A stretch of 37,725 nucleotides of DNA from an uncultured Oscillospiraceae bacterium (GTDB taxonomy: Bacteria; Bacillota; Clostridia; Oscillospirales; Ruminococcaceae). Position 1 is the first letter of the stretch; every line of letters starts with the position of its first letter. A program made the translations under genes and the position numbers. Shown here piece after piece: positions 33,531 through 36,733 of the stretch. A model generated the notes under the pieces. The model saw nothing but the letters and a program-made list of their open reading frames with translations, made no database searches and had not been told where the DNA came from. The stretch covers positions 1 through 37,725 of the forward strand of contig CASDQY010000032.1 of NCBI GenBank assembly GCA_949282975.1, in the 5' to 3' direction.

Positions 33531-33561
33531 TTCCCTTCCCCACACCGGGTGAGGAAGGGAA
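33531..33561 (-). terminator. Possible terminator of the dockerin-protein gene
   Basis: TTCCCTTCC and GGAAGGGAA form a 9-bp perfect stem with a 13-base loop, just after the stop on the minus strand. The following sequence is T-rich but broken (AAATTCCTTCTTTC), so strength is uncertain. Confidence 0.6.
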
Positions 33562-33565
33562 TGTA

Positions 33566-34684
33566 TCATTGGATTGGGAAAACGATTTTTTGTGCCAGCG
33601 CCATGACATCCATAACATTCAGCCGGCCGTCCGATGAAAAATCCCAGCTTTGCTGAAACGGTGCATCCGCCGCCACGTGCTGCGCCAAGGCCATCACATC
33701 CAACACATTGGCTGTTCCATCGCCGTTGATGTCCAGGTTCAGGGAAGCATCCGGAAGCTGGCTGTCATCCTCGGGAAGAGTTCGTTCCACATTTACCCCC
33801 ACCACGCTGTAATTTCCGGCAGCGTCGTAGGCATAAATGTGGGTGTAGTAGGCGCCGTAAACCGGATTCCCGCTTTCATCCTTTTGATAGGGGATGAAAA
33901 GGGAGTATTGCTGATCTTCCGATTCCACCGGATACCAAACAGCGGACTCCCCCGGGCTCTGCCCGGCATACCAGGAGGGGAAATAAACCCTTGCCACTCC
34001 AACGTCGTCTGTGATGGTGCAGGTTACGGTATAGCCGTCCTCCTGCAAAACGGTCTGGACCTGAGAAATCACCGGTGCAGTAACATCGGCTTGTTCGGTG
34101 GAGTAATTTTCCGCTGTGTACAGGGATAAACCACGGAAATAGGACGCCAGCCGTTCCCAGCTCATGGTGCGGACCGCCACGCCGCAATGATTGTCCCAGT
34201 TGCAGTCAAACACAGTAATGCCGGTTTCATCCTGGGAAAGATAGATCATGGTGTGGCCGTAACTGCCGCTGCGGCCCTGGATAAAGTCGCCGGGCCGGGC
34301 CTGGGCAAAAATCTGCTGCATCAGCTGAGTATCGTCGGAGGCAAAATCCCATTCACGGGCCAATTCCACAGCGCCGGATGGATTGGGCAGATAGTAATAG
34401 TCCTCATCATACCGGCCGATGAAAGTCACTCCAAACAGCCGGTAAAAAAAATAATTGGCAAAGCCCTTGCACTGGATTCCGTAATAATACTGCGACGTGG
34501 TGCCGCTGCTGTCGCTGGGGCTGCCGTCGGTGGTCCAATACGTTCCTTCATATTCTTCGATCAGCTGCTCCAGCGCCGATTCGGTAACTGTTTTTGAGGA
34601 AACCGCCGTTACAGCAGCAGAAAACAGCAGGACCACTCCGCAAAGCAGAGCGGTCAGTTGTGTTAAGGTCTTTTTCAAGCACAT
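33566..34684 (-). CDS. Secreted cysteine-peptidase/amidase-like protein with Bsp-like and dockerin domains
   Basis: A 372-residue secreted protein. Residues 1-29 are a signal peptide ending near TAVSS. Residues about 60-190 look like an NlpC/CHAP-type papain-fold amidase: Cys72 in GIQCKGFANYFFY, His144 in GSYGHTMIYLS, and FDCNWDNHCG about 15 residues later. Residues about 200-300 resemble a GBS Bsp-like/Ig-like repeat. Residues about 316-370 form a type I dockerin with two calcium loops, LDINGDGTANVLDVMAL and DFSSDGRLNVMDVMAL. It would be attached to a cohesin-bearing surface protein and act on peptidoglycan or another peptide. The start overlaps plsC by 10 bases; a TTG two codons on is also possible. 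Catalytic assignment is by motif only. Confidence 0.85.
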   Translation of the reverse strand: MCLKKTLTQLTALLCGVVLLFSAAVTAVSSKTVTESALEQLIEEYEGTYWTTDGSPSDSSGTTSQYYYGIQCKGFANYFFYRLFGVTFIGRYDEDYYYLPNPSGAVELAREWDFASDDTQLMQQIFAQARPGDFIQGRSGSYGHTMIYLSQDETGITVFDCNWDNHCGVAVRTMSWERLASYFRGLSLYTAENYSTEQADVTAPVISQVQTVLQEDGYTVTCTITDDVGVARVYFPSWYAGQSPGESAVWYPVESEDQQYSLFIPYQKDESGNPVYGAYYTHIYAYDAAGNYSVVGVNVERTLPEDDSQLPDASLNLDINGDGTANVLDVMALAQHVAADAPFQQSWDFSSDGRLNVMDVMALAQKIVFPIQ

Positions 34685-35484
34685 TCACCCTTCATCTGCT
34701 TTTCAAAGGAGTATGGGTGTTTTTGTAATTCTTCATTCATTGCTTTTTCCACCTGACGCTGCAGCAGACGGACAGATTCCTGGGGCGTTTTCCCCAGGGG
34801 AGGATAGATGGGATCTAAAATCCAAAGATCCATGCAGGGTTTTTTCTTAAATAAGCGGTACAAACCCTTTGGTTCACGGTAGGTGATCACCATGGGCAGA
34901 ACCGGGACCTGGGCGTCCACCGCCATTTTAAAGGCGCCCCGCTGCATTTTGCGGATGCCTAAGTTATAATAAGGCCGCAGCACCCGCTCCGGATAGATTT
35001 GGACGGCGGCGCCTTTTTTCAGCGCCTGTTCCAGTTGGGAAAACAACTCTTTGGTGCGGTGTGGGTGGTTGGACTGGGGCACTGCACCCAAAATGCGAAT
35101 GAGCTGTTTTACCACCGGGATGCGGAAGTTTTCTTCCAGGGTCATAAAGTACATCCGCTTTCGAAACAGCGCCAGGGCAATCATGGTGCAGTCCATATAA
35201 TGGACGTGATTGCACACCCCCACCACGCCGGTATGCTTCAATGCTTTATAGCGCTTTATGCCGTGGATATGCAGTCCAAAGGCCAAGGTATTCAGAATGC
35301 GGAGGATGCCCAAAACCGGATACAGGGCAAGATAGTGGAAAAAGGTTTTCCAAAAGCTGTTTTGAAGGTAATCATAGCCAAGTTCTGTGTTAAATTCCAA
35401 CGGACGCCACATTTCCACTGCTTCTGTTCCGGCCTCCGCTTGTGGAAACTCTGAGGCGTCCATGGAAAGCTGCTCATCTTCCAT
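34675..35484 (-). CDS. PlsC-like 1-acylglycerol-3-phosphate acyltransferase family protein
   Basis: A 269-residue LPLAT-family acyltransferase. The catalytic HX4D motif is in CNHVHYMDCT. The glycerophosphate-binding motif, usually FPEGTRS, reads YPERVLRPYY here, so the glycine is lost. PVLPMVITYREPKG is the fourth block. A hydrophobic stretch around residues 50-70 suits membrane association. The preceding glycosyltransferase overlaps it by 11 bases and the dockerin gene follows, suggesting a glycolipid or envelope-lipid role rather than core phospholipid synthesis. The altered motif makes the acceptor uncertain. Confidence 0.88.
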   Translation of the reverse strand: MEDEQLSMDASEFPQAEAGTEAVEMWRPLEFNTELGYDYLQNSFWKTFFHYLALYPVLGILRILNTLAFGLHIHGIKRYKALKHTGVVGVCNHVHYMDCTMIALALFRKRMYFMTLEENFRIPVVKQLIRILGAVPQSNHPHRTKELFSQLEQALKKGAAVQIYPERVLRPYYNLGIRKMQRGAFKMAVDAQVPVLPMVITYREPKGLYRLFKKKPCMDLWILDPIYPPLGKTPQESVRLLQRQVEKAMNEELQKHPYSFEKQMKGECA

Positions 35485-36622
35485 TGTTCTCTCTCACCGC
35501 CTGTTCAAACATTGCTTCAGCCTGCCGGACACAGTCTTCCAAAGCGTATTTTTTGCCCAGCTCGGCATAACGGAATTCCATTTGCTCCCGCTCTTCGGGA
35601 TGATCAATCCACCAATCAATTTTTGCCGCCAAATCTTTGCTGTTGCCCACCTCAAACAGGCTGCGTTCATCCAAAGCAAACTGCGGCGTGGCAGAATTGG
35701 GGCTGTTTGCGATGACCGGCACCAAACCGCTGGCAAAGGCCTCCATACAGGACATGGCTTCAATTTCCACATCCGCCGCATGGACATAGAGGTCGCAATA
35801 GCCCAGCAGCTGAATCAGGTCGGGTTTGGAATAAAATTGAATGATGGGGGGATGGCGCAGCAATTTTCCGGCCAGTTTTTCCAGTTTCTTTTTTCTCGGC
35901 CCCTTTCCCGCCAGGATCAGTTGAATCCGGTCGGCATAACGGCTCATAGCCACAGCACGGATCAGCACATCCGGCCGTTTTTCAATGGACAGCCGCCCGG
36001 TTTGCAGGATGACAAATTTATCCCGCAGCTGTTTGGGCTTATGGCGTTTGAAATAGTGAAAATCCGGGTCAATGCCGTTGGAGATGACATGAAGCTGCTC
36101 CGTATATCCGGTACGCACCAGCTGCTGCGCAATGAATTTGCTGGGGCAATGAATATGCGTGCAGTAGCGGTAAATATACCGGTGAAAGAAATGGTACAGC
36201 AGATCGTTGATCCAGTTGACCTTGCCCAGGTACACCGAAGAGGTAATGTTTTGGGGCTGTACATGAAACGCAGCGGTAAAGGGTTTATGCTTTTTTTGTG
36301 CCACCCGAATGGTTTTATGAGACAGGAAAAAGGGGGATAAAATGTGGATCAGATCCGCCCAGTCCACCGCTTTTTCAATTACTTTTCGCTGACGTTTTGC
36401 AAACACCATCCCCTGAGATGTAATCAAGCGATTAAAAATCGGCACGTAATACTTTCCCACCAGATAGGCGGAGTCCGTATCCTCCACCATGTCCGGCGTA
36501 CCATAGCTCATTACACGCACTTCATGGCCATGCTGTTTCAGTACCCCGGCAAACCGCCGTGCAGAAATGGTCATCCCATTGTTGGCGGCATAATATTGAT
36601 CGGATACCAATAAAATTTTCAT
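35474..36622 (-). CDS. Glycosyltransferase family 4 protein
   Basis: A 382-residue GT-B glycosyltransferase. MKILLVSDQYYAANNGMTIS is the N-terminal GT4 loop. Later segments are HVISNGIDPDFHYF, ILQTGRLSIEKRPDVLIRA (nucleotide-sugar binding), ILAGKGPRKKKLEKL and DVEIEAMSCMEAFASGLVPV with the EX7E pair. The layout recalls diacylglycerol glucosyltransferases and other UDP-sugar GT4 enzymes. Coupling to a PlsC-like gene points to a membrane glycolipid. The start follows AAAGGAAG; the upstream extension of the frame covers the promoter and is excluded. Confidence 0.92.
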   Translation of the reverse strand: MKILLVSDQYYAANNGMTISARRFAGVLKQHGHEVRVMSYGTPDMVEDTDSAYLVGKYYVPIFNRLITSQGMVFAKRQRKVIEKAVDWADLIHILSPFFLSHKTIRVAQKKHKPFTAAFHVQPQNITSSVYLGKVNWINDLLYHFFHRYIYRYCTHIHCPSKFIAQQLVRTGYTEQLHVISNGIDPDFHYFKRHKPKQLRDKFVILQTGRLSIEKRPDVLIRAVAMSRYADRIQLILAGKGPRKKKLEKLAGKLLRHPPIIQFYSKPDLIQLLGYCDLYVHAADVEIEAMSCMEAFASGLVPVIANSPNSATPQFALDERSLFEVGNSKDLAAKIDWWIDHPEEREQMEFRYAELGKKYALEDCVRQAEAMFEQAVRENNGR

Positions 36623-36704: not shown

Positions 36705-36733
36705 ATTATAGCACAAGTATTTACATATTTCAA
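36705..36733 (-). promoter_or_regulatory. Promoter of the glycosyltransferase operon
   Basis: Minus-strand TTGAAA (36733-36728), 17-base spacer, TATAAT (36710-36705) with extended TGC. It begins directly after the GNAT gene's stop. Confidence 0.85.

What the first reader, a model, noticed from the sequence alone, without database searches (positions are those of the whole stretch)
33566..36622. Dockerin-bearing cysteine-peptidase/amidase-like protein co-transcribed with a glycolipid-type glycosyltransferase and acyltransferase
Dockerins normally carry plant-polysaccharide enzymes into cellulosomes. Here one is fused to a papain-fold domain (Cys72, His144) and a Bsp-like repeat. The gene overlaps plsC, which overlaps a GT4 gene. 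It suggests cohesin-dockerin attachment used for cell-wall remodelling or competitor lysis, linked to membrane glycolipid synthesis.
Basis: partly seen in the sequence, partly recalled or inferred. Interest (0 to 1): 0.5.

Follow-up and report, generated by a model that had tools for sequence, protein, structure and literature searches.

The report
Surface-docked peptidoglycan hydrolase beside glycolipid genes
A Clostridia-type bacterium appears to hang a cell-wall-cutting enzyme on its surface with the plug-and-socket parts usually used for plant-fibre enzymes; this kind was partly known, but some related gut bacteria carry it as a compact three-gene kit of enzyme, adaptor and anchor.

Summary
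On the minus strand, 36622-33566, a GT4 glycosyltransferase, a PlsC-type acyltransferase and an export-type 372-aa dockerin protein overlap by 11 and 10 nt, between a promoter-like site and a terminator-like hairpin. The catalytic domain keeps Cys72, His144 and Asn162 in 32 of 32 aligned domains; its model best resembles NlpC/P60 and CHAP wall hydrolases (MepS Z 11.2, PlyC 10.8). The genome has cohesins, sortases and 13 dockerins; 11 of these, the window's included, share one motif, and one belongs to a GH25 lysozyme. Best reading: a peptidoglycan hydrolase held on the surface by cohesin-dockerin pairing. Of 22 named relatives 19 carry SH3_3 and 14 a dockerin. In five of five readable loci of one related family the gene starts a three-gene row: hydrolase-dockerin, cohesin-like/dockerin adaptor, cohesin-like/membrane anchor. 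The tie to glycolipid synthesis is not supported: GT4-PlsC is its own pair (13 of 16 loci, three in one frame), and none of the 16 has this hydrolase beside it. Dockerin-borne NlpC/P60 proteins and lysozyme in cellulosomes are published, and a review coined 'lyticome'. So: a new variant of a known kind. Activity and cohesin partner are untested.

The parts
36705..36733 (-). promoter-like site TTGAAA-17-TATAAT, 82 nt before the GT4 start
   Evidence: 11 of 12 consensus bases, TG before the second hexamer
35474..36622 (-). GT4 glycosyltransferase, 382 aa, EX7E motif (motif meaning recalled)
   Evidence: Pfam Glycos_transf_1 E 2.2e-25, Glyco_transf_4 E 1.2e-21; best NCBIfam resemblance to alpha-monoglucosyldiacylglycerol synthase, 54.5 bits against a cut-off of 400
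34675..35484 (-). PlsC-type acyltransferase, 269 aa, HX4D motif (motif meaning recalled); a second PlsC-like gene lies on contig C136
   Evidence: Pfam Acyltransferase E 5.5e-18
33566..34684 (-). export-type dockerin-bearing peptidoglycan-hydrolase-like protein, 372 aa
34595..34684 (-). signal-peptide-like N terminus, residues 1-30
   Evidence: read from the sequence; no signal-peptide program was available
34094..34588 (-). catalytic domain, residues 33-197, NlpC/P60-CHAP type
34469..34471 (-). codon of Cys72, predicted nucleophile
   Evidence: 32/32 in A3, 22/23 in A5
34253..34255 (-). codon of His144
   Evidence: 32/32 and 23/23
34199..34201 (-). codon of Asn162, predicted third catalytic residue
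   Evidence: 32/32 and 23/23
33776..34084 (-). Ig/FnIII-like domain, residues 201-303, weak GBS_Bsp-like resemblance
33584..33733 (-). dockerin, two repeats with DVMALAQ
33531..33561 (-). terminator-like hairpin, before the promoter-like site of the next gene (ruvC by reading)
   Evidence: 13 pairs

Best explanation
The 372-aa protein is an exported Cys-His-Asn hydrolase of the NlpC/P60-CHAP fold that cuts peptidoglycan cross-bridges or stems. A beta-sandwich spacer joins it to a C-terminal dockerin, which plugs into a cohesin of this genome's own sortase- or membrane-anchored scaffold proteins. The enzyme thus works from the cell surface beside other dockerin-borne proteins, among them a GH25 lysozyme. 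Shown by computation: export-like N terminus (by eye), conserved triad, predicted fold, dockerin, presence of cohesin proteins and sortases. Inferred: catalysis, the exact bond, which cohesin binds, and whether the target is the cell's own wall or that of neighbours. The gene was probably appended to an independent GT4-PlsC operon (inference from the neighbours of homologues).
For: Triad C 32/32, H 32/32, N 32/32. Of the best 17 structural matches, 15 are titled as wall endopeptidases, autolysins, endolysins or members of the NlpC family and two only as 'bacterial peptidase' (MepS Z 11.2 over 127 residues at 2.8 A, PlyC 10.8, PlyGRCS 10.6, LysGH15 CHAP 9.0, CwlO 8.3). PHROG endolysin family 7887 matches residues 65-203 at E 1.7e-8. 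Profile A3's best PDB sequence hits are a CHAP domain of lysin L2 (E 0.0045) and two LytN wall-hydrolase chains (0.0075, 0.033). 19 of 22 named relatives match SH3_3 and 14 of 22 Dockerin_1 at E 0.01 or better. Own genome: 7 cohesin matches, 6 over cut-off, 11 dockerin matches, 4 sortases, a GH25-dockerin lysozyme; the window's dockerin shares D(V/T)MxLAQ with 10 of the 12 others aligned. All 13 genomes whose copy carries a dockerin have a cohesin match (one below cut-off); of 15 whose copy shows none to its C terminus, 5 do, and of the 10 among them read in full, 2. Five of five readable family-f10 loci encode hydrolase-dockerin, adaptor and anchor in a row.
Against: No activity is shown, and the R. 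flavefaciens dockerin-borne NlpC/P60 module showed no detectable protease activity (PMC3573020, section 8). No Pfam peptidase family was listed. Foldseek alone gave no E below 0.001, and its first hit was a GH85 enzyme. Mean pLDDT is only 63. The catalytic family as a whole is not clearly enriched in cohesin-bearing genomes: 45/81 against 136/313, p 0.06. The dockerin-cohesin co-occurrence is confounded by kinship; one search gave no cohesin for G433 where one search gave one, and I took. Of the own cohesins, whole-protein Pfam scans pass the cut-off for C86, C13 and C18 only; C12 falls just below and C61 was not listed. The window's gene is not next to a cohesin gene. No copy of the catalytic domain was found in the two same-genus genomes; these MAGs are incomplete and gave no match to the window's ruvA-like protein either, but nor did the 94%-complete G043, so that check is weak.
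Confidence: 0.68

Rival explanations
1. It is a dockerin-borne cysteine peptidase or amidase for non-wall substrates (mucin, dietary or host protein), one more protein-degrading arm of a mucinolysome- or cellulosome-like complex.
For: The same genome has dockerin-linked M26-type metallopeptidase, GH43, GH127 and CAP proteins; Limousia mucinolysomes include dockerin-bearing peptidases (PMC12997984, passages); papain-like folds also cut proteins, and ComA and PCAT1 peptidase domains appear lower in the match list.
Against: The best structural matches are mostly wall hydrolases, PHROG relatives are called endolysins, and 19 of 22 named relatives carry SH3_3.
Confidence: 0.17
2. The hydrolase works together with the glycolipid made by GT4-PlsC, for example in building or releasing envelope polymers.
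For: The three genes overlap and lie between one promoter-like and one terminator-like site; in 3 of 11 family-f20 loci the related gene lies just before sugar transferase and glycosyltransferase genes (L108, L109, L111, names read from the sequence).
Against: GT4-PlsC occurs as a pair or in one frame in 13 of 16 loci, and none of the 16 stretches holds this gene; in the 17 relatives' neighbourhoods I saw no GT4-PlsC pair, by eye only.
Confidence: 0.12
3. The enzyme is inactive and serves as a wall- or peptide-binding module.
For: Copies without the catalytic Cys exist: one relative has Ser for Cys, and one repeat of the R. flavefaciens strain 17 protein too (PMC3573020, section 8).
Against: The window protein keeps all three residues.
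Confidence: 0.06

Closest known systems
Ruminococcus flavefaciens RflaF_05439 (two NlpC/P60 modules plus X-dockerin; second module solved)
   Same: NlpC/P60-type fold with Cys-His-polar triad on a dockerin protein; its dockerin is said to bind the surface cohesin ScaE (PMC3573020, sections 8 and 13, there as unpublished results; PMC5301203, passages, names a putative cysteine peptidase among ScaE partners)
   Different: Two tandem domains, an X module, Gln as third residue; not among the PDB sequence hits of the window protein or of profile A3
GH25 lysozyme in the Ruminococcus champanellensis cellulosome (ScaK), dockerin-containing cell-wall hydrolases, and the 'lyticome' proposal
   Same: Cell-wall hydrolases joined to a cohesin-dockerin complex (PMC6403190, one passage; PMC6780208, passages; the original reports were not read)
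   Different: Another enzyme class; here a CHAP-like cysteine enzyme and, in relatives, a three-gene unit
Phage endolysins (PlyC, PlyGRCS, LysGH15) and NlpC/P60 endopeptidases (MepS, CwlO)
   Same: Predicted fold and Cys-His pair (the pair in these enzymes is recalled)
   Different: Not known to carry dockerins (recalled); identity 12-21% in the structural alignments
Limousia mucinolysome
   Same: Gut bacterium with cohesins, a sortase-anchored scaffoldin and dockerin-borne peptidases (PMC12997984, abstract and passages)
   Different: Specialised in mucin; lysozyme, GH25, NlpC and amidase do not occur in that paper's main text

Membership tests
NlpC/P60-CHAP superfamily of peptidoglycan hydrolases | Cys at the start of a helix, His in the following sheet, third polar residue | tested here: met
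   Cys72 in helix 65-84, His144 in strand 142-151, Asn162 after strand 155-161; conserved 32/32
NlpC/P60-CHAP superfamily of peptidoglycan hydrolases | overall fold | tested here: met
   VIA-align: of the best 17 rows (Z 8.3-11.2) 15 carry titles of this kind, two only 'bacterial peptidase'; predicted model only, Foldseek E not significant
NlpC/P60-CHAP superfamily of peptidoglycan hydrolases | match to Pfam CHAP or NLPC_P60 | tested here: not met
   no such family listed at E 1; so at most a divergent relative, not a Pfam member
NlpC/P60-CHAP superfamily of peptidoglycan hydrolases | hydrolysis of peptidoglycan | not testable with these tools
   needs an assay
Type I dockerin proteins | two calcium-binding repeats matching PF00404 | tested here: met
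   E 2.2e-6, over cut-off
Type I dockerin proteins | cohesin partner in the same genome | tested here: inconclusive
   cohesins are present: 7 matches, 6 over cut-off, 5 contigs; which one binds was not testable
Cellulosome | plant-polysaccharide enzymes on the same scaffold | tested here: inconclusive
   GH43 and GH127 with dockerins are present, but GH25, M26 peptidase, CAP and LRR proteins too
Three-gene hydrolase-adaptor-anchor row (described here from relatives) | cohesin-like genes directly downstream | tested here: not met
   ruvC (by reading) follows in the window; the layout is met in 5 of 5 readable f10 loci

The most novel reading that the evidence does not exclude
Cohesin-dockerin pairing is used in several gut Clostridia lineages as a system in its own right for displaying peptidoglycan hydrolases. 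Its simplest form is a self-contained three-gene operon (CHAP-SH3-dockerin enzyme, cohesin-dockerin adaptor, cohesin-membrane anchor), and the window's protein is a cargo of a larger version that also carries a GH25 lysozyme. The display would serve controlled wall remodelling or contact-dependent lysis of neighbours.
Probability: 0.4. Interest if true: 0.7.

Novelty: new variant of a known kind. Interest (0 to 1): 0.5.

Why it matters
Cohesin-dockerin pairing is mostly studied for plant-fibre breakdown. A small, repeated gene set that hangs a wall hydrolase on the cell surface would show the same toolkit used on bacterial walls. It would make the 'lyticome' idea testable with three small proteins instead of a giant cellulosome.

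Tried and rejected
Glycolipid link: rejected as a conserved association. Contig contamination: rejected, since the window's 762-aa ClpC-like protein is 96% identical to that of same-genus G001. Lineage-specific insertion of the operon: undecided; the same-genus MAGs gave no match to the ruvA-like protein, but nor did the 94%-complete G043. A general link of the catalytic family with cohesins: not significant, 45/81 against 136/313, p 0.06. The search for related loci with the window protein found no relative. Foldseek without realignment gave nothing below E 0.001. The PDB sequence search with the window protein listed eight dockerin chains and one antibody chain. The R. flavefaciens NlpC/P60 entry (4EZY in the paper's legend; I recall 4EYZ) was not among the rows shown, which is no evidence of difference.

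Cohesin half of the f10 adaptor and anchor: support is weak to moderate. The adaptor model has pLDDT under 50 over most of that half, so there was no fold test. hhalign against the seven own cohesins: adaptor E 5.1e-5, probability 67; anchor E 7.6e-6, probability 84; single comparisons without a negative control. Of 392 frames in L118-L140 the six best hits of an own-cohesin profile were adaptors or anchors, E 0.0012-0.2. Pfam cohesin: listed below cut-off for 2 of 4 adaptors (L103, L104) and for none of 3 anchors; the genome search had matches in 4 of the 5 operons (G224, G314, G296, G277; not G236), one over the cut-off (G224 anchor). The anchor profile's two best PDB hits are cellulosome-anchoring cohesins, but at E 0.26 and 0.61.

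Rows dropped and biases: the dockerin profile was built from 13 own-genome dockerins and 5 segments of the relatives, so those five are not independent; Pfam gives 14 of 22 independently. Before '5 of 15' I dropped four frames cut off at the C-terminal side (L020, L060, L076, L085) and one duplicate (L059 of L028). Five of the 15 (L028, L069, L071, L079, L082) were not read to their N terminus; of the other 10, two have cohesins (G228, G318). In the script I set G433 to 'cohesin' by hand. The 16 PlsC loci are 16 of the first 17 places after the window's own; G012 was not taken. From, L140 and two short frames of L138 were left out of the 22.
Full report
What is there. The window is one whole contig (C32) of a 2.0-Mb draft genome, 84.7% complete. 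Three overlapping genes run on the minus strand: GT4 (36622-35474), PlsC-type (35484-34675) and a 372-aa export-type protein (34684-33566). A promoter-like site lies 82 nt before the first start, and a 13-pair hairpin follows the last stop; the next gene (ruvC by reading) has its own promoter-like site. So the three genes look like one transcript that ends before ruvC; no RNA data were available. The contig belongs to this genus: its 762-aa ClpC-like protein (name read from the sequence) is 96% identical to that of a same-genus genome.

The protein. It has a signal-like N terminus (by eye), a catalytic domain (33-197), a beta-sandwich (201-303) and a C-terminal type I dockerin (Pfam E 2.2e-6). 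The catalytic domain had no Pfam match listed at E 1, but a PHROG endolysin family matches it (E 1.7e-8). A profile of four rows, the window's and three relatives', finds the domain in 81 of 394 genomes of the order. In 32 distinct domains read from the 30 best loci of that search and three earlier ones, Cys72, His144 and Asn162 (window numbering) are unchanged in all; in a second set of 23 one member has Ser for Cys. AlphaFold2 with 23 sequences gave mean pLDDT 63, with block means of 71-95 from residue 111 to 190 and 84 around Cys72. Realignment to solved structures put MepS (Z 11.2), PlyC (10.8) and PlyGRCS (10.6) near the top; of the first 17 rows 15 are titled as wall endopeptidases, autolysins, endolysins or NlpC-family members and two only as 'bacterial peptidase'. 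Foldseek's own E-values were not significant (best 3e-3). The profile's best PDB sequence hits were a lysin CHAP domain (E 0.0045) and two LytN wall-hydrolase chains. Together these place it as a divergent cysteine enzyme of the peptidoglycan-hydrolase type. The bond cut is unknown.

Its docking system. The own genome holds seven cohesin matches on five contigs, six over the cut-off; a later, wider search listed six. Whole-protein Pfam scans pass the cut-off for C86 (three stretches), C13 and C18, fall just below for C12 and list none for C61. There are eleven dockerin matches and four sortases. Two more dockerins came (C100) and from reading the C13 protein. Of these 13 dockerins, 11, the window's included, share D(V/T)MxLAQ in the first repeat; that this motif takes part in cohesin recognition is inferred. 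Dockerin partners include a GH25 lysozyme, GH43, GH127, a CAP protein, LRR proteins and an M26-type metallopeptidase. The cohesin proteins on C86 and C12 end in LPXTG-like tails, by reading.

Relatives. Twenty-three named loci were found; 14 of the 23 titles name ruminant caecum or rectum. Of 22 proteins from them (L140, split over two frames, and two short frames of L138 left out; L119 is cut by its contig end), 19 match SH3_3 and 14 Dockerin_1 at E 0.01 or better. Of the order genomes whose copy I could read, 13 carry a dockerin and all 13 have a cohesin match, one below the cut-off and one (G433) but not. Of 15 whose copy shows no dockerin up to its C terminus, 5 have a cohesin match; of the 10 of these read in full, 2. 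This is confounded by kinship, and the catalytic family as a whole is not enriched (45/81 against 136/313, p 0.06).

A compact gene row in one family. Twenty genomes of family f10 are held; six, in two genera, have the gene. In five of five whose contig continues (L118, L120-L123; L119 ends inside the gene) the hydrolase-dockerin gene is followed, after a 4-nt overlap or a 1-nt gap, by a 247-253-aa protein with a cohesin-like N half and a C-terminal dockerin, and then by a 333-342-aa protein with a cohesin-like N half, a Ser/Thr-rich linker and a C-terminal membrane helix (the last two by reading). The other adaptors are 36-72% identical to the L123 one, so the order has lasted. The dockerin half is firm: an own-genome-based profile finds it in 5 of 5, and the adaptor profile hits a solved scaffoldin-adaptor dockerin at E 4.3e-11. 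The cohesin half rests on weaker evidence, listed under Tried and rejected.

The neighbours. Relatives of the window's PlsC were read at 16 loci, 16 of the first 17 places after the window's own. A related GT4 gene is adjacent in 10 and in the same reading frame in 3 (L167, whose GT part is broken, L169, L170); 3 have none in the stretch held (L157, L158, L161). None of the 16 stretches has a match to the dockerin protein. The GT4-PlsC pair is therefore an independent unit, probably for an acylated glycolipid (inference), to which the hydrolase gene was added here. A second PlsC-like gene exists in the genome (C136).

Comparison with the literature. R. flavefaciens RflaF_05439 carries two NlpC/P60 modules and an X-dockerin; its dockerin is said to bind the anchoring cohesin ScaE, and no protease activity was detected (PMC3573020, abstract and sections 8 part 1 and 13; PMC5301203, passages). 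A review notes lysozyme activity in the R. champanellensis cellulosome and dockerin-containing wall hydrolases and suggests a 'lyticome' (PMC6403190, one passage); the reports it cites were not read. PMC2930009, PMC5814915, PMC6780208 and PMC12997984 were read in passages only (the last also its abstract). The listings of ten searches (three of them cut short: 15 of 32, 12 of 13 and 10 of 13 shown) gave no title or start of abstract on a three-gene hydrolase-adaptor-anchor operon; subscription papers are mostly not held.

Verdict. Surface docking of a wall hydrolase is the best reading (0.68); the glycolipid link fails the conservation test. The kind is known; the divergent family, its SH3-dockerin architecture in relatives and the compact gene row are a new variant.

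Noticed in passing
L118 3803-6916, L120 803-3998, L121 3462-7020, L122 3686-6962, L123 3692-6970: Three-gene row: CHAP-SH3-dockerin enzyme, cohesin-like/dockerin adaptor, cohesin-like/linker/membrane anchor.
   Followed up: yes
L098 3946-5427 (own genome, contig C78): GH25 lysozyme with Big_2 domain and a dockerin of the same motif type as the window protein.
   Followed up: partly
L088 7321-14832 (own genome, contig C61): A single 2503-aa frame with a dockerin and an M26-type metallopeptidase, an N-terminal cohesin match (24.8 bits, not listed) and a membrane helix by reading; an unusual scaffold-plus-enzyme protein.
   Followed up: partly
L169 1378-3321 and L170 761-2743: GT4 and PlsC-type acyltransferase in one 648- or 661-aa frame, which supports a shared pathway for the window's GT4-PlsC pair.
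   Followed up: yes
L108, L109, L111: In one f20 genus the hydrolase-dockerin gene lies just before sugar transferase, glycosyltransferase and nucleotide-sugar dehydrogenase genes (names read from the sequence).
   Followed up: no
L110 2947-4779 and L109 8723-11500: Further dockerin proteins with a true Pfam CHAP domain near the hydrolase-dockerin gene.
   Followed up: partly
L113 and L117: SpoIID-like genes near the hydrolase-dockerin gene, and an M23-like gene in L113 (read from the sequence); a possible sporulation context.
   Followed up: no
L021 (G073): Another protein with a CHAP-like N-terminal domain, followed by two stretches that resemble the window's Bsp-like domain (by reading).
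   Followed up: no
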